NCBI GenBank assembly: GCA_030066295.1
Contig: JASJBX010000056.1
Coordinates: 32,001-96,000 of the forward strand
From: Crocosphaera sp.
Lineage (GTDB): Bacteria > Cyanobacteriota > Cyanobacteriia > Cyanobacteriales > Microcystaceae
Reading direction: 5' to 3'
DNA length: 64,000 nucleotides
Position numbers and translations under genes: made by a program. A model generated the notes under the pieces. It did not search any database. It was not told where the DNA came from and saw nothing but the letters and a program-made list of their open reading frames with translations. This document shows positions 36 to 33,608 of this stretch, in pieces. Each line of letters opens with the position of its first letter. The first letter of the stretch is position 1.

Positions 36-2441
36 TCAGTTATTACATTCTGAAGTAGTTAACTTTTTATCAGTATAGACATTTAAACGAACCTTGGTTT
101 GATCGCCTCCACTGAGGATATGAATCTTTTGGTTAATGACTTTAATATCAACGGAATTGATGGGTTTTGGTGATTGGTGAATTTTGGTATATTCAGCTTT
201 CGACCGGGTTCCGTTTCCACTCATTTCCCACAGTAAAACCTGTCCATCTTGTCCCCCACTAACGAGATAACATCCATTCCTACTCAACGCCACTGAATAC
301 ACAGGATAAACCTGAGAAGGATTTTCTTTCTCTTTCCATTGATCTCTCGGTGCAAGTCCGTCCCATTGGTCTGTCGGTGCAAGGTTTTGACAATTTTCTC
401 GTTTATTCAGACACTCACTCAAATCCCACACTTGAATTGTACCTCGATTATCAGCCGTGACAATTTGATTAGGTTTATCTTGGGCGGTGGTAATACTTTG
501 AATATAGTGTTTGTCGTTGCCCAAGGTTTGACCAATATCATCACACTTTTTTTCTTCGTTAGTAAAATTACTATCTATTAAACATAATCGATTATATTGC
601 CCACCTAGCACCATAAAATCACGATTTGCTCCAACAAAGACCACACTATAAATAGCAAAATCAAACATTTTTTCTTGATTTGGGGTTGTGGTTATGGGGT
701 TACAATTTGGCGAATTATTGAGGTTAGGATTCAGTTTCCATTGTTTTATTTGTCCATTACCATAACTACCATAAAGAAACTGAGAATCTTGAGAAAAAGC
801 GATATCTAAAACTCGATTATTAGCATCTTGTTTAAAACTGTATTGAAGACAATTACGATCATCTAATAAGTCCCATACTTGAACTTCTCCATTTTCTAAT
901 CCGACAGCAACAACATTATTTTCAAGGGGTTTATATCGAACTACTCTGACTGATTTGGGTAAGTTGTTATCTTTTTTCTTTTCTTGGTCGTTAAATAAAG
1001 ATCGAACTCGTCTGACTAATATGAGTAAGTCGTTATCTTTTTTACCTGTTTTTCTTTTAGATAAAATAGGATTAGTAAAAAGTTTTTTCAAACCAAAACC
1101 CTTTAAATCCCATTCAATTATTGTTTGATCATCAGAACCACTAATGGCGTTTAATCCCCGTCCATTAAACTGAACGGAATTAACAGCTTGTTGATGACCA
1201 CAGATAGGACTGTAGGGATTCAAACAGGACAACCCATACCACACCCATAATAATAATAAACCCGTTAGACCTCCTAACCATAAAGGAATCTTAGGATAAA
1301 TCTTTAATTGTAATAATTCTGTGCTATTTTCTACATCAAGTCTAGTATCACTAGCGATAGCTGAAACAGCAAAAAATAAGGTTTTAACTCTACCAACCCA
1401 AGGACGTACACTATGAATTTTTAAGTCTAATTCTCTCGTTTCATTAGGATTAACTTTAACAAACTGATTTTCTTTCAGAAATAAACTAGCAGCTATCGGT
1501 TCTTTTTCCCATAATTTAACAAAAAGTTTGAAGACTAAAAGTGAGATGATTGGCATTTGTTTATTGATCATTTCCCACTGTTGAGGAAAACTATCAGATT
1601 GAACTAAACTAGCAGACATTAATTGTTTTAAATTGCTTTGATTTTCAAACTGTAAATTATAATTAACTGTAGAAGTTTTCCAATGGGGAAACCAAGGAAA
1701 TTTTTCGGGTAGTTGCTGGGAGTTGGGAGTAGCTTTAAAAATCACTTTTCCCAGAGGAAAAACCTCTAAGGAACCCGCGACTTCCACCGCTTGAACGTTT
1801 TCTTGTTCAACTTTAATAATAAAGGGATAAGTTTGACTAATAACAGTGTTATTTGAAGGTAGTTGACAACTAAAAATAAGTTCTTTCTTTGTTTTTCTTG
1901 GCAAGGACAATCTCTGAATTTTTTCTTCTATTAACCAAGGAGAATTTAAACCTGTTAATGTGGCAGTGATATTAACTGAATTAATCCCAATTTGTTCTAT
2001 TTCACAAGGAATATCAATGGTTTTTCCTGGATAAATATGGAATTTTTTAACAGGTAATCTTACCCGTAAAGAACTTTCATCTTCCCCAGGTTCAATGGTC
2101 AAACGGAGGAATTCTTTTTCTTCAATGTTTTGTAATTCAGTTGATAGTATTGTAACTAAAATATCTAAAGAACCAGCAAAATTTGGAATAGGGTTTTTTT
2201 GCAGTGTAACAGAAAATTTTGCTGTGCCACTTGGAGGTATTTTTTGACCAATATCAGGAGTCAGTTGATACCAATCATTGATATTAATTTCATCGGTTCC
2301 TGCTGCTTGTAAAATAACTTGAAAGCTGGCAAATTGATCACTAAGATTAACCACAGATACTTGAAAAGTTTCGGGGTTTTTTCCAGGTTTAAAATCGATA
2401 TAATTAGTTGAAATTGTTACTTCTATTGATTTATTGTTCAT
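36..2441 (-). CDS. membrane-anchored WD40-repeat protein with N-terminal Ig-like beta-sandwich regions; eCIS-associated
   Basis: 801 aa; hydrophobic segment IPLWLGGLTGLLLLWVWYGL; WD-type motifs (VNSVQFNGRGLNAISGSDDQTIIEWDL, VYSVALSRNGCYLVSGGQDGQVLLWEM). Confidence 0.75.
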   Translation of the reverse strand: MNNKSIEVTISTNYIDFKPGKNPETFQVSVVNLSDQFASFQVILQAAGTDEININDWYQLTPDIGQKIPPSGTAKFSVTLQKNPIPNFAGSLDILVTILSTELQNIEEKEFLRLTIEPGEDESSLRVRLPVKKFHIYPGKTIDIPCEIEQIGINSVNITATLTGLNSPWLIEEKIQRLSLPRKTKKELIFSCQLPSNNTVISQTYPFIIKVEQENVQAVEVAGSLEVFPLGKVIFKATPNSQQLPEKFPWFPHWKTSTVNYNLQFENQSNLKQLMSASLVQSDSFPQQWEMINKQMPIISLLVFKLFVKLWEKEPIAASLFLKENQFVKVNPNETRELDLKIHSVRPWVGRVKTLFFAVSAIASDTRLDVENSTELLQLKIYPKIPLWLGGLTGLLLLWVWYGLSCLNPYSPICGHQQAVNSVQFNGRGLNAISGSDDQTIIEWDLKGFGLKKLFTNPILSKRKTGKKDNDLLILVRRVRSLFNDQEKKKDNNLPKSVRVVRYKPLENNVVAVGLENGEVQVWDLLDDRNCLQYSFKQDANNRVLDIAFSQDSQFLYGSYGNGQIKQWKLNPNLNNSPNCNPITTTPNQEKMFDFAIYSVVFVGANRDFMVLGGQYNRLCLIDSNFTNEEKKCDDIGQTLGNDKHYIQSITTAQDKPNQIVTADNRGTIQVWDLSECLNKRENCQNLAPTDQWDGLAPRDQWKEKENPSQVYPVYSVALSRNGCYLVSGGQDGQVLLWEMSGNGTRSKAEYTKIHQSPKPINSVDIKVINQKIHILSGGDQTKVRLNVYTDKKLTTSECNN
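935..1043. repeat. imperfect direct repeat (~43 bp, 66 bp period) in the WD40 gene
   Basis: ATCGAACTACTCTGACTGATTTGGGTAAGTTGTTATCTTTTTT (935-977) vs ATCGAACTCGTCTGACTAATATGAGTAAGTCGTTATCTTTTTT (1001-1043). Confidence 0.7.
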
Positions 2442-2552: not shown

Positions 2553-3983
2553 CTAATTGTGATGATCTCCATTGCGGATAGATTGAGACGTTTTAATTAA
2601 TTGTTCAATATATTCTTGTTCAGTTGACCAAGAAGATTGTCCTGGTAATGCGGTCAATTCTTCAAGTTGTTCAATTTTTTTCCTGAGAGATTCTTCTCGT
2701 TTATAAATAACACTGATCATTTTAAGAAACACTTTTGCTAAAACTCCTATTTCATCATTTTTTTTACTTATTTTTTCTAATTTATTGAAATCTAAATTTT
2801 CCAAATCTTTTGATTGTATTGCCTCTGCAGCATCAGTTATGGTAGTAATGGGTTCACTTAATTTACGGGAAAGGAATAAGGCTAAAATTGCTGCAAGTAC
2901 ACTTAAAATAACACCGCCTGAAAAAATCAATAAGCTTAACTGCATTAATGGTTTCATAAACAATTGATTGGGAAATGTCATCACTAATAACCAAGAGATT
3001 TCTTGAAAAGGTGAAAGATAAATCTCATTGTTATTAAATGTAAATTGATCTGACTCTGGGTATTTTGTTTGACAATAATTTCGTTCTGTGATTTGTTCTT
3101 CAATCTCAACTGCTGAAGGATCGTTAAAGTTAGGTTGATTGGAGTCGGGGAAAGCAATTATTAGAGATAAATCAGTGATTTCAGATTGAGCAGATTGAGA
3201 TAAACAATCCATGATAAATATCTTTTCTTGCGCTTCAAACGTACGAATTTGACTTAAGTCTTGAATAAGATAAGATAAATTTAAGTCAATACCGATTACT
3301 CCTTCAAATTTGTTACTATCGACATTATTAAAAGGTTGATAAAGAGTCAGTCCGACATTGGAGTTTTGACCATTTTTATCAGAATTTTCAAATGAATAAG
3401 CCTTAGTCCAACCAATTTTTTTAGACTTTTTTGCTGATTTATACCAAGGTCTTTCTTGAGGATTTGTTTTTTGTATGACCTTATATTCATCTTCTCTTTC
3501 ACCTCCCTGCTTCAGAGAATACTCCCGAAACTCTCCATTGGTTTCTGGACCTTTATATTGAGTCACTAATTGATCATTTTGTTTTCTTTTAATTCCTAAC
3601 CATTCTCCTTTCTCACTAGCATAATAAACCTGATAGAGTTGAGGATTATATTTCATTTGGTACCAAAAATATGTTTCAAGGCTGGACTGAGATTGATTAT
3701 TGATATTTTTCTGCATCTCTTTTCCAGATAACCTAAATTGATTTATTTTACTAAGATTTTCTATATTTATTTTTTGATTCATTAAATAATCGATGATTTT
3801 TTCTGCATTATCCTTAACAAATGTAGCTTGTCGCTCTTCATATCTTTGTTTAAAAAATATCCATAACATTACTTGTGTAGAAATAATCGCTAATAACAGT
3901 GGGGTCAAAATTAATAAGAGAACTTTCCAGCGAAAAGAGATAAATTTTGTTTTTACTTCGGGACGTTCAGACAAGTTACTCAT
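2553..3983 (-). CDS. Cache-HAMP membrane sensor with no recognisable output domain
   Basis: N-terminal TM, ~300 aa periplasmic-type region with Cache-like WYKSAKK...GWTKAYSFENS motif, second TM, HAMP-like region, ends after a short coiled coil. Confidence 0.65.
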   Translation of the reverse strand: MSNLSERPEVKTKFISFRWKVLLLILTPLLLAIISTQVMLWIFFKQRYEERQATFVKDNAEKIIDYLMNQKINIENLSKINQFRLSGKEMQKNINNQSQSSLETYFWYQMKYNPQLYQVYYASEKGEWLGIKRKQNDQLVTQYKGPETNGEFREYSLKQGGEREDEYKVIQKTNPQERPWYKSAKKSKKIGWTKAYSFENSDKNGQNSNVGLTLYQPFNNVDSNKFEGVIGIDLNLSYLIQDLSQIRTFEAQEKIFIMDCLSQSAQSEITDLSLIIAFPDSNQPNFNDPSAVEIEEQITERNYCQTKYPESDQFTFNNNEIYLSPFQEISWLLVMTFPNQLFMKPLMQLSLLIFSGGVILSVLAAILALFLSRKLSEPITTITDAAEAIQSKDLENLDFNKLEKISKKNDEIGVLAKVFLKMISVIYKREESLRKKIEQLEELTALPGQSSWSTEQEYIEQLIKTSQSIRNGDHHN

Positions 3984-3998
3984 AGCAATATCCTCAAT

Positions 3999-5381
3999 TT
4001 ATTGATTTTCTAAAGGTTTCTGTAATGCTTGCTGCATTTGCTTACGATCATAGCCGAATTTTAAAATATTAAGCATTAATTCTTGATTGTTTCTGATAAT
4101 TTCTCTAGACAAATTTTGCTGATTATCACTAAAAATAGAAACCATATCACCAATAATAATAATTAATCCTTGTCCCACTAAAAGTTGCAGAGATTGATTA
4201 TTAATGGTTGGGAGTTTTTGAAATAAAAAAGGTTCATTTTTCAGTGGGTGGGAACCGGATAATTCTTCCCAGGTTTCTAGAGAAATATTGAGTTTTTCAG
4301 CTAACTTTTCGATCTTAAAGGAAAGTTGATCAACTTCAATTATAATTGATTTTTTTATTTCTGTGAGTTCATCTTTTAAAATAGGATACATTCGAGTTAA
4401 ATAGTCTGAATTTTCTTGACTCTCATTTTTTCGCTTATTAGCTGTCAAGATGGTATTCTCAATGCGCTCAATTTCTATTAATAGTTGATGTTCAATAATT
4501 TTTAGTTCTTCAAGTTTTGTATTTTTGGTAGAAATTTGAGTCAAAATAATTCCACCTTTGTTTAAATAACTTTGAAGAAACGAAAAATGTTCCGAAGATA
4601 ATTGTTGCGATCGCTGTTGACTTAAAAATAACACATCATCATAATTGTGATTATTTTCTTGATAATCGGTTGTTGATATCTGTCTAATTTTCTGATATCC
4701 TTCATAGGTTGAATCAAGTCCTTTAATTGATTTTAATAACCGATTTAATCCCTGTTGTTCTTCTTCTGCATCTCCTGGTAATACGGCGATTGAAATTAAG
4801 GATAAAGGTTTAGTTTGCGCTTGTTGACGGTAACGGACATCAAGACAATTCGCAGTCGGTTCAAATACATTTTTGGGAGATTTTAAAACAATTTCTTCTC
4901 CTTCTAATTGAATACGACATAATTCAATTTCTCCTGCTTGGGGAGGATTATTTTGCTCTTCAATCCGAAAAGTTTCTTCTATTTCTATCTTATTATGTAA
5001 TTTCAACTCATCCGGATCTACGTAGCGAATAACTAAATAAATTAAGCGAGAAATACCATTTTTTATCTGGGAATAAATATAATAATTTTCTGCTTTGGGA
5101 ACAACAATAAGATCACCAAAACTATCAATAGCAAAACCAGGTTGAATTTGAACCCATCGATGATTACGGTGTTGGGGAGAAACATCTTTATCTTTAGGGG
5201 GAGGAATAACACAAACCCCTAAACCATGAACAATTCCTGGTTGATGAAGAGATTGATAATAAATATTTTGTCTTTGTCTATGATATTGATGGGCAATTTT
5301 CCAGCGTTCAGCTGTTATCTCTAATCCATCAATGACATTAAGACGTTTTAAGGATTTAATCATGGGAAATGAATGGGACAT
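3999..5381 (-). CDS. eCIS-associated conserved protein (RLxxxxGxxxxxxxW...HGLGV family)
   Basis: N-terminus KRLNVIDGLEITAERWKIAHQYHRQRQNIYYQSLHQPGIVHGLGV resembles a family common in phage-tail-like gene clusters; lies inside the tail gene run. Confidence 0.5.
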   Translation of the reverse strand: MSHSFPMIKSLKRLNVIDGLEITAERWKIAHQYHRQRQNIYYQSLHQPGIVHGLGVCVIPPPKDKDVSPQHRNHRWVQIQPGFAIDSFGDLIVVPKAENYYIYSQIKNGISRLIYLVIRYVDPDELKLHNKIEIEETFRIEEQNNPPQAGEIELCRIQLEGEEIVLKSPKNVFEPTANCLDVRYRQQAQTKPLSLISIAVLPGDAEEEQQGLNRLLKSIKGLDSTYEGYQKIRQISTTDYQENNHNYDDVLFLSQQRSQQLSSEHFSFLQSYLNKGGIILTQISTKNTKLEELKIIEHQLLIEIERIENTILTANKRKNESQENSDYLTRMYPILKDELTEIKKSIIIEVDQLSFKIEKLAEKLNISLETWEELSGSHPLKNEPFLFQKLPTINNQSLQLLVGQGLIIIIGDMVSIFSDNQQNLSREIIRNNQELMLNILKFGYDRKQMQQALQKPLENQ

Positions 5382-5505: not shown

Positions 5506-6909
5506 TCACTCCTTAATGATTAGTTCATAAGTTGAAAAGGCTGGTTTTTCTTGTTCGATAATTTGACGAACTAGGCGTTGATCAATTGATTGACCGGCAA
5601 GAGATTGTAATGTTACTGTAAAATGATGGGCTTGTCCTCCTCCGATTAATGCTTGCAAGATAGCATTTGATTTTTCTACAATCATCACCCAAAGTAATGA
5701 TAACCCAAATCTTTCAGCACCTTTTAAGAAAGCTAATATACAAAATTGGTACACTCCTACTTGTTGTCTTAGTCTGGTTTGACCAAGGGTGAATCTTTCT
5801 CCAAATGTTTCTTCAATACTAATATGTTTTTTTCTTTCTGGTAACGTTTCATCTAAGGGTAAATCAGTACAAAGATGTAGGTATAGTCGTAAACCATAAC
5901 GGGTCCCTTTCCATTTATACAATTCGATGGCTTTACTAACCAAATAACGCTGTTGAGAAAGACTTAATGCGGGATTTAATTTCCATCCTACCCAATGGGA
6001 AAGAAAGGGTAAAAATGTGTCACTGGTAAGCATGGGGTTAAAGTACCCCCAAAGCGTATCTAAAATGTTAACATCCGGTTCAAAGGTTTGTTCAAAAATA
6101 GCGAGAAAACGTTCTATAAAATCCGTTTTCTGAGAACTTAATTGCTTTTTTTGAGTTAGAAAGTCCGTTTGTTTGTAAACTTCTGGTAGAAAATTTAAGT
6201 AAAGACTATCAGGACGAACATAAAGCTGAAAGGGCATTATTGCATGCCTAGAACTAATAAAATTTTTCATAAAAACCCATCCTAGAGACTCCATGTTATT
6301 ATTGATCAGCAACAAAAAAATAGCCAATGCAAGAGGACATCTAAACAAAGACCATTGATAATTATAGCTAATAAAACTCCCTTGATAATCTAGGTTTAAA
6401 GAATAACTATCTTGTCGAAGTTCTTGAAATTCAAAAAAATCGGCAGGGATTTTCCATTGAATAATAATATCAATATTTTCATTAGGATAGACTAATATAC
6501 TCTGATTATTAACTGAGCAAAATAATAATAAAAAATGATATAATCCTAAATCAATTAATCCCAAAACAATAAAAGGTAATAACTTATCATCCATTCTAAT
6601 TATTTTGTACCAGGATTTCGGGAAATTGCCTTCTAAGCTAAAACTAAAATCAAGAAATTCAGCAGTTAGGTTTTCCAACTGAAACACCAATTCCCCAACG
6701 TCCCCCGGATAGACAACTATTGTCGGAGATGAACGTTCATTTTCTGTTTCGTAAAAATTTTCAGCTTGTCTGAGTTTTTCTTGTCTTTTAATCGGTTGTG
6801 GTAGAACTTTTGGTAAGGTTAATGGGGTTAGTTGAATGTGAATGGGAGGGGTCATAAAATTAAAGTTTAAACTAATTAATTGAGCTATCTTTCTAGTTAA
6901 ATCAAACAA
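5506..6909 (-). CDS. phage tail protein, gpI-like/TIGR02242-type baseplate component with N-terminal beta-sandwich
   Basis: C-terminal half YLNFLPEVYKQ...FLERFLAIFEQTFEPDVNILDTLWGYFNPMLTSDTFLPFLSHWVGWKL...LVSKAIELYKWKGTRYGLRLYL is typical of tail protein domain TIGR02242. Likely real start at MTPPIHIQ. Confidence 0.85.
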   Translation of the reverse strand: MFDLTRKIAQLISLNFNFMTPPIHIQLTPLTLPKVLPQPIKRQEKLRQAENFYETENERSSPTIVVYPGDVGELVFQLENLTAEFLDFSFSLEGNFPKSWYKIIRMDDKLLPFIVLGLIDLGLYHFLLLFCSVNNQSILVYPNENIDIIIQWKIPADFFEFQELRQDSYSLNLDYQGSFISYNYQWSLFRCPLALAIFLLLINNNMESLGWVFMKNFISSRHAIMPFQLYVRPDSLYLNFLPEVYKQTDFLTQKKQLSSQKTDFIERFLAIFEQTFEPDVNILDTLWGYFNPMLTSDTFLPFLSHWVGWKLNPALSLSQQRYLVSKAIELYKWKGTRYGLRLYLHLCTDLPLDETLPERKKHISIEETFGERFTLGQTRLRQQVGVYQFCILAFLKGAERFGLSLLWVMIVEKSNAILQALIGGGQAHHFTVTLQSLAGQSIDQRLVRQIIEQEKPAFSTYELIIKE

Positions 6910-6921
6910 ACAATTAACGAA

Positions 6922-7431
6922 TTACCATCGAGTGTTTTGATTGCGATCAATAGCGGAACTTGTTCCTCCTGGATTATCTGCATTGTCAACTTTGACGAGG
7001 GTTAAATTAGCCATCGCTTGAATGGGGGTTCCATTTTCTAAAAAGCGAGTGAGACGATAGGTTAACCGTTGAACAAAACAAGTAAAATACCGTTGATTTC
7101 CCCAAGCAAAAATATACACAGGAGGACGTTTATTCTTAGCATCTCCACTCTCTGCAAAATAAACTGCTTGAGTTAAATTCTTAATATATCCCCCAATACT
7201 ATCCCCCATTTCATAACCATCAAATAACACATTATTAATCGTTAAAATACAAGGTTTACGATAACCATAACTCATTTTAGGATACCCATTATCCCCTCTA
7301 GCAGTCTTCCCTTCGTTTAAGATTAACTCATGGTCAAATTCTAGTTCCCTCGGATTAAACATAAATTCAATATTTTTATCATTATCGCGGGGTTGATGAA
7401 TTAGGATCGCTTTTTCTAATTTATCGGTCAC
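6922..7431 (-). CDS. CIS tube-associated protein (Afp7 / T4 gp53-like, LysM-type family)
   Basis: KAILIHQPRDNDKNIEFMFNPRELEFDHEL...YFTCFVQRLTYRLTRFLENGTPIQAMANLTL; directly follows the tube gene. Confidence 0.8.
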   Translation of the reverse strand: MTDKLEKAILIHQPRDNDKNIEFMFNPRELEFDHELILNEGKTARGDNGYPKMSYGYRKPCILTINNVLFDGYEMGDSIGGYIKNLTQAVYFAESGDAKNKRPPVYIFAWGNQRYFTCFVQRLTYRLTRFLENGTPIQAMANLTLVKVDNADNPGGTSSAIDRNQNTRW

Positions 7432-7460: not shown

Positions 7461-8057
7461 TTAATTACTAGCAAAGAATCCTTTATTTTTGGACTCTCTT
7501 CCTTGATCATGAATTGTCGCCCCACCCCCTTGAGGATTGCTAGTGGTTTGTTGCGGATTTAAGGTAACATCGACTTTCAAACCTTCATAAGCAAGGGTTA
7601 ATTCTTCAATAACCACTGCATTTGATTCTGCTTGTAAGGGAGAAATTTGCCAACTCACCGGAATGGCACCAATTAATGTCCAACATTGTAAAATTTCTCC
7701 CCCTTGATTGAACAGTAAAATATTAACGTTGCGACGACAATTATCAATTTGTCGAGAGTTTTGGGGTTTGATTTGGGTAAACATTCGATTAGTCCATCCC
7801 AAAAAAGCGAGATCGTTAATCATTCCCCGTTTTAACGTCACTTCTGAAAATTCAACATTTCCAGGAATGATCCGTTGTTGATAATTGACACCCCCTTCAA
7901 AATAAGTCTCGTAGTTCATCTTCGCTTTTAACCCCGAACATTCGCTAAAACTAGCACTAATTTGACCCTGTCCCTCCATTTCAACATAAAAACGATTAGC
8001 AGTAATATAATTAGTCCCTTCATTGCTGTTAGTTGAATCAATCATATTTCCTCCCAC
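7461..8057 (-). CDS. phage tail tube protein (T4 gp19-like / TIGR02241)
   Basis: NRFYVEMEGQGQISASFSECSGLKAKMNYETYFEGGVNYQQRIIPGNVEFSEVTLKRGM is a canonical gp19-family signature. Confidence 0.92.
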   Translation of the reverse strand: MGGNMIDSTNSNEGTNYITANRFYVEMEGQGQISASFSECSGLKAKMNYETYFEGGVNYQQRIIPGNVEFSEVTLKRGMINDLAFLGWTNRMFTQIKPQNSRQIDNCRRNVNILLFNQGGEILQCWTLIGAIPVSWQISPLQAESNAVVIEELTLAYEGLKVDVTLNPQQTTSNPQGGGATIHDQGRESKNKGFFASN

Positions 8058-8060
8058 AAT

Positions 8061-8456
8061 TTAGTTAACTTGAACGGTAAATTGTCCAGGACTCGTCACT
8101 TTAATAACTCCACCCCAGAGACAATTACAAACTGAAGAATTAGTTAAGGCATTAAAATTATTAATTCTAGTTTTTAAAGCACCAGGAGTCCAAGGAGTAA
8201 CGGTTGCTGGAATACAAGGCATGGGGGTTAACACACCGAGAGCCGCAGCCGTCGCAGCAGCAACGGTGGGATTAGCAAGGGATGTACACATCCCAAAAGT
8301 CGGTATGTTGACAATCGGAGCAAAATCCATAATGGTCGCTGCGAATCGACCACTAGCATTTACTGGCAGCCCTTTGGGAATTACAATCAAAGAACTGGGA
8401 ACACTGCCAAAGGGAAGGCATTGCAAGGTTGCTCCCATCACCACTAATACAGCCAT
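8061..8456 (-). CDS. DUF4280/PAAR-like protein (spike tip or effector-associated)
   Basis: MAVLVVMGATLQCLPFGSVPSSLIVIPKGLPV...MCTSLANPTV...PMPCIPATVTPWTPGA matches the PAAR-like/DUF4280 pattern. Confidence 0.75.
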   Translation of the reverse strand: MAVLVVMGATLQCLPFGSVPSSLIVIPKGLPVNASGRFAATIMDFAPIVNIPTFGMCTSLANPTVAAATAAALGVLTPMPCIPATVTPWTPGALKTRINNFNALTNSSVCNCLWGGVIKVTSPGQFTVQVN

Positions 8457-8470
8457 ATTGTCCCCATCAA

Positions 8471-8680
8471 CTATAGACCGGGGATTTCTGATAGCTCACA
8501 TTCATATTCTTCCACTTTAAACGCGGTTAGTTCCTGCCATTCTTCGAGGGTAAAATGATAGCCTAACTCGCCGGCAACTGCTACAAATTTTAAGGGGGTG
8601 TCCACCTGTTCAAACTGGTTTCTTAAATTAGAATTTTTTTGGAGATCACGGAAAAGTTTAATCACGTTTTGTTGAGCCAT
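8471..8680 (-). CDS. Nif11-like small protein
   Basis: 69 aa; AQQNVIKLFRDLQKNSNLRNQFEQVDTPLKFVAVAGELGYHFTLEEWQEL matches the Nif11 pattern; no Gly-Gly leader motif. Confidence 0.75.
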   Translation of the reverse strand: MAQQNVIKLFRDLQKNSNLRNQFEQVDTPLKFVAVAGELGYHFTLEEWQELTAFKVEEYECELSEIPGL

Positions 8681-8825: not shown

Positions 8826-11144
8826 ATGAGAAAAAATCAACCATCAATGCAGCGTGTCAACTTTAACTCTACCTTATTCAGTAAATTTCCTTGTTCTCGG
8901 GGAAATCCTCTTAATTGTCCTCTTAATTTTCCTCAATTAAAATCGCAAAGTAAGGAGGAATCTCCAGAAGATTCCTGTAAAATCTGCCATTTTCCTGCTC
9001 TTGTCCCAGAAAAAACCAAAATTAAAGGCAAAGAAGGCAATTATTTACTTGATCGGACCATTGGCTATCGAGGGTTAGGAAGACTTTACCAAGGAACCTG
9101 TTTAATCGATCAACAAGCAGTTATTATTAAAGAATATCTTTTTCCTGATAAGTGCTTTGAAAAATCAGACATTAAACGTCGTCCAGATAATTTACAAAAA
9201 TTTAGTAATTTACAATTAATTGATGGTCGAAAACCAGATTTTCGTCTTCTTCTTCCTAAAGAAACTATTATCGAGCGTCAGGCTCAACGTTCGTACCAAC
9301 GCTGTTATAGCATTTTCAATGTAGCGGTTTCGGCCTTGTCTTTGCGAGGGTATCTAGAGAAGAATGATTCAATAGAGGAAGAAATAGTCTGGCAAATATT
9401 AGACCAAGTTTTACAAAGTTTATCCTTACTTCACCGTCAAAAATTTCGCTTATCTTTCGGTGTTGTTAAATCTGGAATAGCTCATGGAAATCTCTCTTTA
9501 GATACTCTCTTGATATCTTTTGATCATCAAAGTTTTTTGATTTATTTAGCTGATTTAGCTCTGTGGGAGAGGTTTGCTGATCCTTTATCAACTAAAAATT
9601 TGAATGAAATTTGTACTGATACAGCAAGATTAGAAGATTTAAAGAATTTAGGCTATATCGGTTTTTATTTATTAGCAGGAACTACGGTAGATGATGAGGG
9701 AAAACCGCTTGATCCCTATCAAGATAAGAATTGGAAAGATTGCAGTCAAGTTTTAAAGACTTACTTATTTAATTTAATGGGTAAGGGAATATTATCTCTA
9801 AAAACAGCCGAAATTGCCAGACAAGAACTCTTAAAAGTTAGACCCAAAATCAGTCCATCTAAGGTAAGTCATAGCTTATTACCTCTATCTTCATCTACAA
9901 CTAGTAATCATCGTCGTTGGTGGTGGATAGGAGGTGGAATACTCGGTTTAATTCTTTTGGTTTTATTGCTTTATTGGTTAAGTATAAAAATTAGAGTCTC
10001 TCAATTCAATTTGATGGGGTTTGCTAGAGGAAAAATTGCTAATATTGCTGATACTTCATCGGGTACTTTTTATTATGGTGCTATTCAAGGAAGTAGTTGG
10101 GATTATGTCTATACTCAAAAAAATTTAACTAAGTTTAGGGAAAATCTGGAGGAAACAATTGAGAACTCTTTTCCTAATCTCAAACAATGGACATACATTT
10201 CTTTAGGAGGAAATCAAAGTGATTTCAAGTTTTTAGTAACAACACCAATCAGGATTACAAAAAAGAGGGAAATAGATAGAATTAATTTTATGATTGGTAG
10301 TCCCGATTCTCCTCTCTCAACCCAGTATAAAACCTCACCCTTTGCTTATGATGCGATCGCGGTTTTTGTTGCTTTTAATTATGCAAAACGACAGAATGGA
10401 CTCCCTTATGCACTGAAGGGACAAATCACCCTTAAACAACTGCAAAAAATTTATACGGGACAAGTTAAACATTGGGACGAATTAAATCGTCATTTCCCAC
10501 CCTTACCTATTCAATTATATGTTCCAACCGATCCAGAAATTGAAGCAATCTTTAAAGCTAGAGTTTTACAAACTGAAGATATGAAGAAGAAATATGAGTT
10601 CTTGGTAGCAAAAGCGAAGGAAGATAATCCAGAAACAACCGATACAATGCTTAAAAATCAAGCTTGTTCTCAAAAATCGGAGGATATTCGTCCTATTTAT
10701 CGCCGTTCAACCTACGGAGAAGAAGGAATATTACAATGTATAATTAAAGATTTTGAAGATAATGATGATCCCATTGGTAGTATTGGTTTTGATAGTTTAA
10801 GTAAAATTGTTAGTCAATGTTCTGTGTATCCTTTGGCCATTTCTACAGAAGGAAAAGATGCTATTTCTCCCTTAATTTTAGATAGAGAACAAGGAATTAC
10901 TCCTGAAACCAATCTTTGTAATCATAAAGGGAGTTATGGGGTTAATACTAAAGCAGTCAGAAGTCAAAAATATCCCTTGACTTACCCCTTATCTGTGATT
11001 TATTACCGAGATAATCGTCGTAATTTAGTTGGCGATCAATTTGCGGACGTTTTAAAAACAAGAAAGGGACAATGCTTATTAAAAATAGTTCAATTAACCC
11101 CTATTTTTGAAATTACTTCTTGCAAAGATTCTGATACTTTTTGA
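8826..11144 (+). CDS. degenerate protein kinase - TM - PstS-like periplasmic binding domain fusion
   Basis: Kinase-like N-lobe (GYRGLGRLYQGT...VIIKEY), HGNLSLDTLLIS replacing HRDLKPxN, ADLAL replacing DFG; TM WWWIGGGILGLILLVLLLYWL; C-terminal PBP-like region (GQITLKQLQKIYTGQVKHWDELN). Confidence 0.75.
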   Translation: MRKNQPSMQRVNFNSTLFSKFPCSRGNPLNCPLNFPQLKSQSKEESPEDSCKICHFPALVPEKTKIKGKEGNYLLDRTIGYRGLGRLYQGTCLIDQQAVIIKEYLFPDKCFEKSDIKRRPDNLQKFSNLQLIDGRKPDFRLLLPKETIIERQAQRSYQRCYSIFNVAVSALSLRGYLEKNDSIEEEIVWQILDQVLQSLSLLHRQKFRLSFGVVKSGIAHGNLSLDTLLISFDHQSFLIYLADLALWERFADPLSTKNLNEICTDTARLEDLKNLGYIGFYLLAGTTVDDEGKPLDPYQDKNWKDCSQVLKTYLFNLMGKGILSLKTAEIARQELLKVRPKISPSKVSHSLLPLSSSTTSNHRRWWWIGGGILGLILLVLLLYWLSIKIRVSQFNLMGFARGKIANIADTSSGTFYYGAIQGSSWDYVYTQKNLTKFRENLEETIENSFPNLKQWTYISLGGNQSDFKFLVTTPIRITKKREIDRINFMIGSPDSPLSTQYKTSPFAYDAIAVFVAFNYAKRQNGLPYALKGQITLKQLQKIYTGQVKHWDELNRHFPPLPIQLYVPTDPEIEAIFKARVLQTEDMKKKYEFLVAKAKEDNPETTDTMLKNQACSQKSEDIRPIYRRSTYGEEGILQCIIKDFEDNDDPIGSIGFDSLSKIVSQCSVYPLAISTEGKDAISPLILDREQGITPETNLCNHKGSYGVNTKAVRSQKYPLTYPLSVIYYRDNRRNLVGDQFADVLKTRKGQCLLKIVQLTPIFEITSCKDSDTF

Positions 11145-11166: not shown

Positions 11167-12399
11167 ATGAGTAATCATTTAGCAATTGCAGCTATTACAA
11201 CCACATTACAAAATCTTATTAATCAAAGAATTAATCAAGGAATTGGGGCAAAAAATGTCACAACTCTCCCCTTAGATAAAGCACGAGACAATAATGAAAC
11301 GAATCAAATAAATCTTTTTTTATATCATCTTTTTCCTAATTTAGCTTGGCAAAATCGTCATCCCATCGCTCAAAGAAATCGCGGTGAAAGTAAAAAAAGT
11401 CCTCTCGGTTTGGATTTATTTTATTTAATTTCTGTTTATGGAGAGAAAGATGATGAAGTGATAAGTCATGAATTATTAGGAAAGGTTATTAGTCTTTTTC
11501 ATGATCTTAATAAAATCACTCCCAATATGATTGAAACAGCAACCAGTAATGAATTAAGAGAAAGTAATTTACATGAACAAATTGAGCAAATTAATATTAT
11601 TCCCTTATCCCTTTCTTTAGAAGAAACTTTGTCAATTTGGCAAGGTTTTAATGTTCCTTATCGTCCTTGTGTTTGCTATCAAGTATCTGTTATTTTGATT
11701 GATAGTCAACAATCTTTAATGATTCCTCTACCCGTGCTATCTCAACATAATAAACAGGGGAAAATTGCACAATTAGGTTTTTTACCAACCTTAACAAATA
11801 TTGAATTACCTAACCGTAAACCTAGCGCACAATTAGGGGATATTATCACCCTTAGAGGGAATAATTTGGACAAACCTGGGATTAAAATTAGATTGACCCA
11901 TACTCAATTTAAACATAGTTTAGACCTTGAGCCGTTAGAGGATATCAAATCTGATAAAATACAAATAAAAGTCCCTAACCCAGAAGAAGTAGCAGTTAAT
12001 GAGTGGCGAATTGGTTTATATTTAGTTAGTATTGTTTGTATAGAAGGGGAAAATCAAACCCAACAATCTAATGAATTCCCTTTAAGTTTAGCTGCTCAAG
12101 TCATTGCTTTAACCCCACAAGAAACAAGAGAAGGTCCTCTTAAAATTAGGGTACATTGTACCCCTGCGTTACAGTCGAAACAAAAAGCATTTGTTTTATG
12201 GGGGGATCAGGTTTTTCCGACTCGTAAACGTTCCCATCCTCAGCAACCTACCATCACTACCCTTACTTGTAACATTCCCTCAGTTACTCAAGGGGAATAT
12301 GTTGTACGTTTAAGGGTTGATGGAATAGATAGTATTCCTGTCGATTTTAATACCTTTCCTTGGGAGTTTGATGGGAATCAAAAGATCATTGTCAGATAA
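11167..12399 (+). CDS. DUF4255 (Pvc16/Afp16-like tail terminator) with IPT/TIG-like domain
   Basis: MSNHLAIAAITTTLQNLINQRI...NQINLFLYHLFPNLAWQNR is the DUF4255 signature. Track start 11107 is probably too early; ATG at 11167 avoids overlap with the upstream CDS. Confidence 0.85.
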   Translation: MSNHLAIAAITTTLQNLINQRINQGIGAKNVTTLPLDKARDNNETNQINLFLYHLFPNLAWQNRHPIAQRNRGESKKSPLGLDLFYLISVYGEKDDEVISHELLGKVISLFHDLNKITPNMIETATSNELRESNLHEQIEQINIIPLSLSLEETLSIWQGFNVPYRPCVCYQVSVILIDSQQSLMIPLPVLSQHNKQGKIAQLGFLPTLTNIELPNRKPSAQLGDIITLRGNNLDKPGIKIRLTHTQFKHSLDLEPLEDIKSDKIQIKVPNPEEVAVNEWRIGLYLVSIVCIEGENQTQQSNEFPLSLAAQVIALTPQETREGPLKIRVHCTPALQSKQKAFVLWGDQVFPTRKRSHPQQPTITTLTCNIPSVTQGEYVVRLRVDGIDSIPVDFNTFPWEFDGNQKIIVR

Positions 12400-32003: not shown

Positions 32004-33608
32004 ATGTCATTGTTACTAAATCATCGTTATCAAGTCCTTGAAAGCTTAGGCAAAGGGGGGTTTGGAGAGACATTTCTCGCCATTGATACCCATATGCCTT
32101 CAGAAAGAAAATGTGTTATTAAACAACTTAAACCTGCGGTTCAGTCTCCTGTTATTCCTGATTGGTTAAAGGAAAGATTTGCTAAAGAAGCAGCGATTCT
32201 AGAGGAATTAGGGGAAAAACACCCTCAAATCCCCACCCTATACGCCTACTTTTCAGAAGGAGGGGATTTTTACTTAGTACAAGAGTGGATCGAAGGAGAA
32301 ACCTTAACCCAAATTCATCAACGACAAGGGAATTTATCCCCCAACCAAGTTAAAGAGATGTTAAGCGGTATTCTACCGGTTCTTGACTATATCCATAGTC
32401 GTTATATTATTCACCGAGACATTAAACCAGATAACATTATCATTCGTCATTACGACAAGAAACCGGTTTTAATTGATTTTGGCATTGTTAAAGAAACCGT
32501 TGCCACGCTGGTTCACTCCAATGGTAATACTCCCTATTCCGTTGGCCTGGGAACCCCTGGTTATATGGCTTCAGAACAAGCGGCTGGCCGTCCTATCATT
32601 TCCAGTGACTTGTACAGTTTAGGACTAACTGCCGTCTTTTTACTCACAGGAAAAACCCCCCAATATTTAGCCACCGATCCGACTACGGGGGAAGTTTTGT
32701 GGCGAAAAGAAGGCCCCGAAATTAAGTCTAATTTGGGAAATGTGATCGATCGCGCTGTTCGTTTTCATCCCCGCGATCGCTTTTCTACGGCCCAGGAAAT
32801 GTTAGGGTCCCTACAAGTGTCTCACACCGTCCCCACGGCAGCGACTATCGCCGTTGGAGAACACAATTTATCTTTGAATAGGGATTCATCTCAACCCCTG
32901 ACCAACCCAGAAGAAAGGGAAAACAAAACCCCTTGGGCTTTATTGACATTGGGTTCGTTTTTAGCGGCCAGTGCTATCATTGGAGGGTTAATGTTAGGCA
33001 TCGTTTTAGGGACCAAACAGCGATCGCAGCCGACTGTTTCCCCTTCTGTTTCCCCAGAGTCCCCAGAACCTTCACCACCGCCTCAACCAGAGTTTTCTCA
33101 ACCGAAGCCCAAACCCCGTCGACCGATTCGACGTTCTGTGGGTTCTCCCTCTTCTCCCACTCAAGAAGCGAAACCCCCCTCGACTCCAACTTCAGAACCT
33201 TCTCCTACTCCAGAAGCGAAACCATCTACCACCCCTGAAACAGAACTTTCTTCTCCCCCAGCGGCCAAACCGTCTACCACCCCTGAAACAGAACCTTCTT
33301 CTCCCCCAGCGGCCAAACCTGCCCCTGACCCCGAAATAGAACCTTCTCCTAATTTAACGCCTATTCCAGAACCCACGAAGGCCGTTCCTATTCCCGTCGA
33401 ACCCCCTCCCCAAGTCTCTCAACCGAGGGATAACACTGACAATAATCCTTCAGAACCCTCTCTTGTGATTCCCAATATCCCCCTTGAACCTGAAGACAAA
33501 AAACCCCCTGAACAAGAAGAAAATAAATATAACATTCAAAAATACTTTGATTCTGATAGAAAACAAAACCAATCTAACCTTCAACCATACTTTGATTCTG
33601 ATAGTTAG
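32004..33608 (+). CDS. Ser/Thr protein kinase with TM and proline-rich extracytoplasmic tail
   Basis: GKGGFGETFLA, HRDIKPDNIII, DFGIVKE; TM; P/S/T/E-rich repeat tail. Confidence 0.93.
   Translation: MSLLLNHRYQVLESLGKGGFGETFLAIDTHMPSERKCVIKQLKPAVQSPVIPDWLKERFAKEAAILEELGEKHPQIPTLYAYFSEGGDFYLVQEWIEGETLTQIHQRQGNLSPNQVKEMLSGILPVLDYIHSRYIIHRDIKPDNIIIRHYDKKPVLIDFGIVKETVATLVHSNGNTPYSVGLGTPGYMASEQAAGRPIISSDLYSLGLTAVFLLTGKTPQYLATDPTTGEVLWRKEGPEIKSNLGNVIDRAVRFHPRDRFSTAQEMLGSLQVSHTVPTAATIAVGEHNLSLNRDSSQPLTNPEERENKTPWALLTLGSFLAASAIIGGLMLGIVLGTKQRSQPTVSPSVSPESPEPSPPPQPEFSQPKPKPRRPIRRSVGSPSSPTQEAKPPSTPTSEPSPTPEAKPSTTPETELSSPPAAKPSTTPETEPSSPPAAKPAPDPEIEPSPNLTPIPEPTKAVPIPVEPPPQVSQPRDNTDNNPSEPSLVIPNIPLEPEDKKPPEQEENKYNIQKYFDSDRKQNQSNLQPYFDSDS
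33219..33314 (+). repeat. 48-bp tandem direct repeat (2 copies, 16-aa unit KPSTTPETExSSPPAA)
   Basis: 33219-33266 and 33267-33314 differ at two visible positions. Confidence 0.9.

What the first reader, a model, noticed from the sequence alone, without database searches (positions are those of the whole stretch)
8826..11144. Pseudokinase fused through one TM helix to a PstS-like periplasmic binding domain, beside the CIS genes
The N-terminal kinase fold keeps a Gly-loop-like segment and a candidate VIIKEY lysine but has HGN in place of HRD and ADL in place of DFG. It is followed by a TM helix and a ~350-aa PBP-like region. This looks like a ligand-sensing receptor whose cytoplasmic part works by binding rather than catalysis. 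I do not know of this architecture as an established CIS component.
Basis: partly seen in the sequence, partly recalled or inferred. Interest (0 to 1): 0.8.

Follow-up and report, generated by a model that had tools for sequence, protein, structure and literature searches.

The report
Dead kinase–binding-protein receptor beside injection machine
A cyanobacterial membrane protein joins a kinase that has lost its catalytic residue to a phosphate-binding-protein fold that has lost its phosphate loop. It is conserved across cyanobacteria and was found only in genomes with one type of contractile injection system, which suggests that it holds or triggers that machine at a membrane.

Summary
The 772-aa ORF (8826-11144) consists of an N-terminal four-Cys ribbon, a Hanks-type kinase fold, one TM helix and a PstS-type binding-protein fold; AF2 and Foldseek support both folds. 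The family is clearly pseudokinase: HRD is HGN in 79/80 homologues and HGH in the other, and the activation segment is about half the normal length. The PBP half is degenerate too: the PstS SGT ligand loop has become P-x-x-x-E-A. Two invariant Cys suggest an oxidising compartment. A genome scan found 196 relatives; the 80 best are all cyanobacterial. In 386 cyanobacterial genomes, 22/22 carriers have a CIS cap gene (Pvc16) and 0/347 cap-less genomes carry the protein. It tracks a CIS subtype with a long cap protein and a short Cis13, distinct from Anabaena's thylakoid CIS. I found no paper describing it. Best explanation: a bitopic sensor/adaptor that docks or licenses this CIS at a membrane. 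It would work like Streptomyces CisA and the pseudokinase EssB/YukC, but homology to neither is shown. The mechanism is inferred; architecture, conservation, selection and CIS linkage are shown.

The parts
8826..11144 (+). Pseudokinase-TM-PBP protein, 772 aa
   Evidence: single open frame; 80-sequence family alignment A2; dN/dS 0.34 vs the nearest homologue L205
8892..8987 (+). Four-Cys ribbon (C23, C31, C51, C54), like the N-terminal motif of cyanobacterial Ser/Thr kinases
   Evidence: each Cys present in 73-74/80 homologues
9006..9845 (+). Kinase-fold domain, residues 61-340
   Evidence: hhalign E 1.9e-10 to active STPK; AF2; Foldseek kinases E ~1e-9
9129..9131 (+). K102, beta-3 lysine (VIIKEY)
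   Evidence: K in 74/80, replaced by Q/R/Y/H in the rest
9483..9491 (+). H220-G221-N222 in place of HRD: catalytic Asp lost
   Evidence: N222 in 79/80, H in one, Asp never present; register
9552..9560 (+). D243-L244-A245 in place of DFG: metal Asp kept
   Evidence: D in 79/80; 28 residues to alpha-F Asp271 against 44-45 in active STPKs
9936..9992 (+). Single TM helix, residues 371-389
   Evidence: Kyte-Doolittle; a TM segment here in 80/80, K/R richer on the kinase side in 67/80
10038..11120 (+). PstS-type binding-protein domain, residues 405-765
   Evidence: Pfam PBP_like_2 over cut-off; AF2 pTM 0.88; Foldseek Sll0540 E 2e-13
10524..10541 (+). Residues 567-572 (PTDPEI) where PstS has the SGT ligand loop
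   Evidence: alignment to the window's own PstS and to CHAT-PBP proteins that keep SGT; counts
10818..10919 (+). Span from C665 (QCSVYPLA) to C698 (NLCNHKG): invariant Cys pair, likely disulfide
   Evidence: both 80/80
11167..12399 (+). Long Pvc16 (DUF4255) cap protein with TIG domain, downstream on the same strand (from the ATG)
   Evidence: Pfam; all 22 carrier genomes have the long form
8471..8680 (-). Nif11-like small protein, divergent
   Evidence: Pfam; the same arrangement in many homologue loci
8061..8456 (-). DUF4280 PAAR-like spike tip
   Evidence: Pfam
7461..8057 (-). gp19 tube protein, Pvc5/Cis5-like
   Evidence: PDB hits Pvc5 and All3323; CIS5_fam E 6e-17
6922..7431 (-). CIS tube protein (PF19266)
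   Evidence: Pfam
5506..6909 (-). Tail_P2_I / Cis12-like baseplate protein
   Evidence: Pfam and NCBIfam
3999..5381 (-). Short Cis13-like protein
   Evidence: CIS13_fam partial match; same family in carrier genomes

Best explanation
It is a bitopic receptor/adaptor belonging to one subtype of cyanobacterial contractile injection system. The catalytically dead kinase domain lies in the cytoplasm and acts as a protein-docking (possibly nucleotide-binding) module for a baseplate component or a phosphoprotein partner. The TM helix fixes it in the cytoplasmic or thylakoid membrane. The PstS-fold domain lies in the periplasm or lumen, where it senses the envelope state or mediates oligomerisation instead of classical phosphate binding. 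A change outside is passed across the membrane so that assembled CIS particles are recruited and fire only when licensed, as proposed for Streptomyces CisA. Shown: domain folds, loss of the catalytic Asp and the PstS ligand loop, purifying selection, co-occurrence and synteny with the CIS. Inferred: topology in vivo, docking partner, signal and effect on firing.
For: Kinase fold without catalytic Asp. Activation segment 23-28 residues against 44-45 in active STPKs. PstS fold without the SGT loop. Invariant Cys pair and positive-inside bias, N-in. Co-occurrence: 22/22 carriers have Pvc16 and 0/347 Pvc16-negative genomes carry the gene, Fisher p 1e-25 without correction for relatedness. CIS core gene within 10 kb in 28/37 loci with full flanks. 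Often directly upstream of the gp19-tube-VgrG-gp25 operon. Conserved synteny in another genus. Precedents: CisA (PMC12237407) and EssB/YukC (PMC12599244).
Against: No physical or genetic data exist for any homologue. In one clade the gene sits with a histidine kinase and LuxR regulator, which also fits a purely regulatory role. 9 of 37 well-flanked loci have no CIS core gene within 10 kb. CisA's cytoplasmic part is disordered, not a pseudokinase. Two long-Pvc16 genomes (G199, G382) appear to lack the protein.
Confidence: 0.55

Rival explanations
1. It is a signalling receptor that controls expression of the CIS genes and does not touch the particle: the PBP domain senses a ligand and the pseudokinase modulates a histidine kinase/LuxR response regulator or an FHA protein.
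For: In one clade (27 of 80 rows) the gene order is histidine kinase > LuxR regulator > this gene > Zn-ribbon-FHA protein, with one origin possible on the tree. LuxR regulators, sometimes with a histidine kinase, are known beside eCIS loci (PMC8213781).
Against: The window and most other clades lack the HK-RR-FHA genes. The gene tracks structural subtype (long cap, short Cis13), which a regulator need not do. The ligand loop is degenerate.
Confidence: 0.22
2. It is a membrane anchor only: the pseudokinase binds the baseplate and the PBP fold is an inert lumenal or periplasmic foot, with no sensing.
For: Both ligand and catalytic sites are degenerate, and the Cis13 of this subtype shows no clear TM anchor in most carriers.
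Against: The PBP surface keeps many invariant residues (W425, D509, W550, Q664, Y668), more than an inert foot would need.
Confidence: 0.12
3. The kinase domain keeps some catalytic activity (unconventional phosphotransfer, or SelO-like AMP transfer).
For: K102 and D243 are kept in 74/80 and 79/80; HGN is strongly conserved, not drifting; SelO shows that pseudokinases can have other chemistry (PMC12599244).
Against: The catalytic Asp is never present, the catalytic-loop Asn is Ser/Thr in A2, the activation segment is short, and the lysine itself is lost in 6/80.
Confidence: 0.06
4. It is an unrelated gene, or a CIS cargo, that happens to lie near the CIS genes.
For: Some loci have no CIS genes within 10 kb.
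Against: Co-occurrence 22/22 against 0/347 and synteny across genera; a TM-anchored bitopic protein is not cargo-like.
Confidence: 0.03

Closest known systems
CisA of Streptomyces coelicolor (PMC12237407)
   Same: Encoded in a CIS cluster; one TM helix; cytoplasmic N-terminus; C-terminal extracytoplasmic domain described as solute-binding-like; needed for CIS firing; predicted contact with Cis11.
   Different: CisA is 468 aa with a largely disordered N-terminus and a ~160-aa C-terminal domain; here a folded pseudokinase and a ~350-aa PstS fold.
EssB/YukC of type VII secretion (reviewed in PMC12599244)
   Same: A membrane pseudokinase with a shortened activation loop that recruits a secretion machine.
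   Different: Different machine and phylum, no PBP domain. A sub-cut-off YukC match (E 0.008, TM region) to one homologue is not evidence of membership.
PstS / PBP_like_2 phosphate-binding proteins (Synechocystis Sll0540, PDB 9l8j)
   Same: Fold and sequence profile of the C-terminal half.
   Different: SGT oxyanion loop lost; membrane-fused; added conserved Cys pair.
CHAT-TM-PBP_like_2 fusions of cyanobacteria (L190, L191)
   Same: The same PBP module behind one TM helix (hhalign E 2.7e-25).
   Different: Cytoplasmic part is a caspase-like CHAT domain and the SGT loop is intact.
Thylakoid CIS of Anabaena PCC 7120 (PMC8894136)
   Same: Cyanobacterial CIS with gp19, tube, Pvc16 and Cis13 genes.
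   Different: tCIS has a short cap (All3327) and anchors through a Cis13 TM helix; no kinase is mentioned in the paper. The window's cap has no PDB match to All3327.

Membership tests
Hanks-type Ser/Thr protein kinase (catalytically active) | Protein-kinase fold | tested here: met
   hhalign E 1.9e-10, AF2, Foldseek
Hanks-type Ser/Thr protein kinase (catalytically active) | Catalytic Asp of HRD | tested here: not met
   Asn in 79/80, His in 1/80
Hanks-type Ser/Thr protein kinase (catalytically active) | Full activation segment | tested here: not met
   23-28 residues from DFG-Asp to alpha-F Asp, 44-45 in active STPKs
Bacterial pseudokinase | Kinase fold lacking at least one of beta-3 Lys, HRD Asp, DFG Asp | tested here: met
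   HRD Asp absent throughout; definition from PMC12599244
PstS-type phosphate-binding protein | PstS fold and Pfam PBP_like_2 over cut-off | tested here: met
   31.5 bits against 27; Foldseek top hits PstS
PstS-type phosphate-binding protein | SGT phosphate-binding loop | tested here: not met
   replaced by P-x-x-x-E-A
PstS-type phosphate-binding protein | Phosphate binding | not testable with these tools
   needs ITC or a structure
CisA (Streptomyces CIS membrane adaptor) | CIS-linked single-TM protein with extracytoplasmic C-terminal domain | tested here: met
   (topology predicted only)
CisA (Streptomyces CIS membrane adaptor) | Sequence homology to CisA | tested here: inconclusive
   CisA itself not held; a Streptomyces plasmid Zn-ribbon-TM-F5/8C protein beside CIS genes, not verified as CisA, shows no similarity beyond the ribbon
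CisA (Streptomyces CIS membrane adaptor) | Required for CIS firing | not testable with these tools
   needs a deletion mutant
EssB/YukC | Linked to type VII secretion genes | tested here: not met
   neighbours are CIS genes
Thylakoid CIS (tCIS) | Cap protein of the short All3327 type | tested here: not met
   window cap has no PDB hit; the second, short cap in the same genome matches All3327 at E 1.6e-18
Thylakoid CIS (tCIS) | Cis13 transmembrane anchor | tested here: inconclusive
   window Cis13 has one hydrophobic stretch (400-418) that may be buried strand; about half of the carriers show none

The most novel reading that the evidence does not exclude
Cyanobacteria hold a second membrane-coupled CIS class, distinct from the thylakoid-anchored one, whose docking and trigger element is a double-pseudo receptor: a dead kinase inside and a PstS fold without its ligand loop outside, convergent with CisA and EssB.
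Probability: 0.45. Interest if true: 0.75.

Novelty: new variant of a known kind. Interest (0 to 1): 0.62.

Why it matters
How cytoplasmic CIS particles are brought to a membrane and told to fire is open; CisA is the one studied case, and close cisA homologues are absent in another lineage with a cytoplasmic CIS (Roseiflexus, PMC12998442). A conserved, CIS-restricted bitopic protein with folded domains on both sides gives cyanobacteria a concrete, knock-out-able candidate for that switch, and would be a second case, after EssB/YukC, of a membrane pseudokinase serving a secretion machine. It also marks a CIS subtype that can be recognised from sequence.

Tried and rejected
Pfam, NCBIfam and single-sequence PDB search gave no kinase match for this protein; the family profile was needed. 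CIS13_fam (NF053767) as a marker of tCIS: no hit over cut-off, not used as a classifier. CisA membership: no CisA sequence could be fetched, and the Streptomyces plasmid candidate is unverified. Phage-defence reading: PADLOC hits are only weak generic kinase-like matches (PD-T4-6). A catalytic kinase was rejected on the HGN motif and short activation segment. Cargo/effector rejected on TM topology. The literature search found no CIS paper naming a pseudokinase and no kinase mentioned in the Anabaena tCIS paper; supplements and subscription papers could not be searched.

Full report
Observation. The ORF 8826-11144 (+) is a single open frame of 772 aa. The window lies in a cyanobacterial genome of 4.4 Mb that carries one copy. 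Pfam sees only the C-terminal PBP_like_2 domain (31.5 bits, cut-off 27) and no kinase. A family profile restores the kinase: hhalign of 23 homologues against the active Ser/Thr kinase encoded elsewhere in the window (32004-33608) gives E 1.9e-10, and hmmsearch of the PDB gives PstS proteins (Sll0540, E 1.2e-10) and protein kinases (WNK3, staphylococcal PknB; 3.5e-5 to 4e-4). AlphaFold2 on 80 homologues gives mean pLDDT 83.4, about 90 or more through most of residues 61-340, a helix at 363-395 and a confident C-terminal domain. Foldseek returns kinases for the full model. For the separately modelled C-terminal domain (pTM 0.88) the best hits are PstS proteins, led by Synechocystis Sll0540.

Anatomy. 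Residues 23-54 form a four-Cys ribbon (each Cys in 73-74 of 80 homologues). In the kinase domain the beta-3 lysine K102 is present in 74/80 and is Q, R, Y or H in the others. HRD is HGN in 79/80 and HGH in one, so the catalytic Asp is never present. The stretch from that Asp to the alpha-F Asp (D271, 80/80) is 23-28 residues, against 44-45 in five active cyanobacterial kinases checked, so the activation segment is cut down. A TM segment lies between the domains in 80/80 and the kinase side is richer in K/R in 67/80, consistent with kinase inside, PBP outside. In the PBP half, C665 and C698 are invariant, as expected of a disulfide in an oxidising compartment. The PstS loop that carries SGT is replaced by P-x-x-x-E-A. 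Related CHAT-TM-PBP fusions in other cyanobacteria keep SGT, so the loss is specific to this family. Both halves thus look like receptor parts whose original chemistry is gone while the folds are under selection: dN/dS against the nearest homologue (58% identity, another genus of the same family) is 0.34 overall and 0.23 in the kinase domain (dS near 1, so rough).

Distribution. 22 of 386 cyanobacterial genomes carry it. A scan of 85,462 species genomes found 196 relatives, and the 80 best are all cyanobacterial. In the same 386 genomes the CIS cap family Pvc16_N occurs in 39: all 22 carriers are among them, and none of the 347 cap-less genomes carries the protein (Fisher p 1e-25, not corrected for phylogeny, but spread over 18 genera). 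All 22 carriers have a long cap protein (416-464 aa); only 3 non-carriers do (G066, G199, G382; p 5e-8). One of these, G066, encodes a very diverged homologue (L192, hhalign E 1e-15 over the PBP half, kinase part hardly recognisable). The Cis13-like protein of carriers is a short form (325-499 aa, E < 1e-59 to the window's); most non-carriers have a different, longer one. The genome's second cap protein (contig C57, short) matches Anabaena All3327 of the thylakoid CIS at E 1.6e-18, while the window's long cap has no PDB match. The protein therefore marks a CIS subtype different from tCIS.

Neighbourhood. In loci with at least 8 kb on both sides, 28/37 have a CIS core gene within 10 kb and 25/37 within 3 kb. 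Two main arrangements recur. In one, the gene precedes gp19 (Pvc5/Cis5-like), a large protein, the tube protein, VgrG, PAAR and gp25, often with a Nif11-like gene divergent upstream, as in the window. In the other (27 of 80 rows, mainly Nostocales), the order is histidine kinase, LuxR regulator, this gene, Zn-ribbon-FHA protein, next to Pvc16 and sheath. In G414, another genus of the window's family, the whole block Cis13-Tail_P2_I-tube-gp19-PAAR-Nif11 | gene-Pvc16 is syntenic at 56-86% identity. 47 of 50 genomes of the window's family lack the gene, so it is sporadic there.

Mechanism. I propose a bitopic adaptor and checkpoint that docks this CIS subtype to a membrane and licenses firing. 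[quoted passage not shown]), and EssB/YukC, a membrane pseudokinase that recruits the type VII machine (PMC12599244). Shown here: folds, lost active-site and ligand-loop residues, selection, co-occurrence, synteny. Inferred: topology in vivo, binding partner, signal, effect on firing. The main rival is a purely transcriptional sensor, suggested by the HK-LuxR-FHA operons; LuxR regulators beside eCIS loci are known (PMC8213781).

Known or new. Databases name members 'serine/threonine protein kinase' or 'substrate-binding domain-containing protein'. I found no paper on CIS and pseudokinases and no kinase mentioned in the Anabaena tCIS paper; supplementary tables could not be read, so a listing there is possible. 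Membership in CisA could not be tested because its sequence was not held; a Streptomyces plasmid candidate with Zn ribbon, TM and an F5/8C domain shows no similarity beyond the ribbon, but it is not verified as CisA. I rate it a new variant of a known kind.

Noticed in passing
window 8471-8680 (-): A Nif11-like small protein sits divergently upstream of the gene here and in about 20 homologue loci. Its link to the CIS is unexplained.
   Followed up: partly
L190:1852-4020 (-), L191:1979-4090 (-): CHAT (caspase-like)-TM-PBP_like_2 fusions beside DUF1822-like proteins in cyanobacteria: the same outer module with intact SGT loop and a different cytoplasmic output.
   Followed up: partly
L202:17117-17818 and the equivalent genes next to the homologue in Nostocales loci: Zn-ribbon-FHA protein encoded directly after the pseudokinase, after a histidine kinase and LuxR regulator. 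A phosphothreonine reader beside a dead kinase.
   Followed up: partly
L188 (G000:C237), L187 (G000:C57), L189 (G000:C11): CIS genes of this genome are scattered: sheath, VgrG and gp19 copies on C237, a second CIS with short All3327-like cap on C57, a sheath fragment at the edge of C11.
   Followed up: partly
window 36-2441 (-) and L186:13588-16029 (-): Two CIS-side membrane proteins of about 800 aa: one TM helix plus WD40 repeats, and a paralogue-like protein with Ig-like repeats. Possible further membrane partners.
   Followed up: no
window 2553-3983 (-): PDC/dCache-HAMP sensor without an output domain inside the CIS gene run, conserved in G414.
   Followed up: no
L037:11190-15197, and loci L056, L060, L067, L080: A TPR-CHAT protein of about 1300 aa lies directly upstream of the gene in one Nostoc clade.
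   Followed up: no
L192:1558-3816 (-): Highly diverged homologue in a long-cap genome: kinase motifs almost gone, PBP half still recognisable.
   Followed up: partly
L200:23454-24254 (+): Streptomyces plasmid CIS locus with a Zn-ribbon-TM-F5/8C (NADase_transloc) protein: possible CisA-like gene, unverified.
   Followed up: partly
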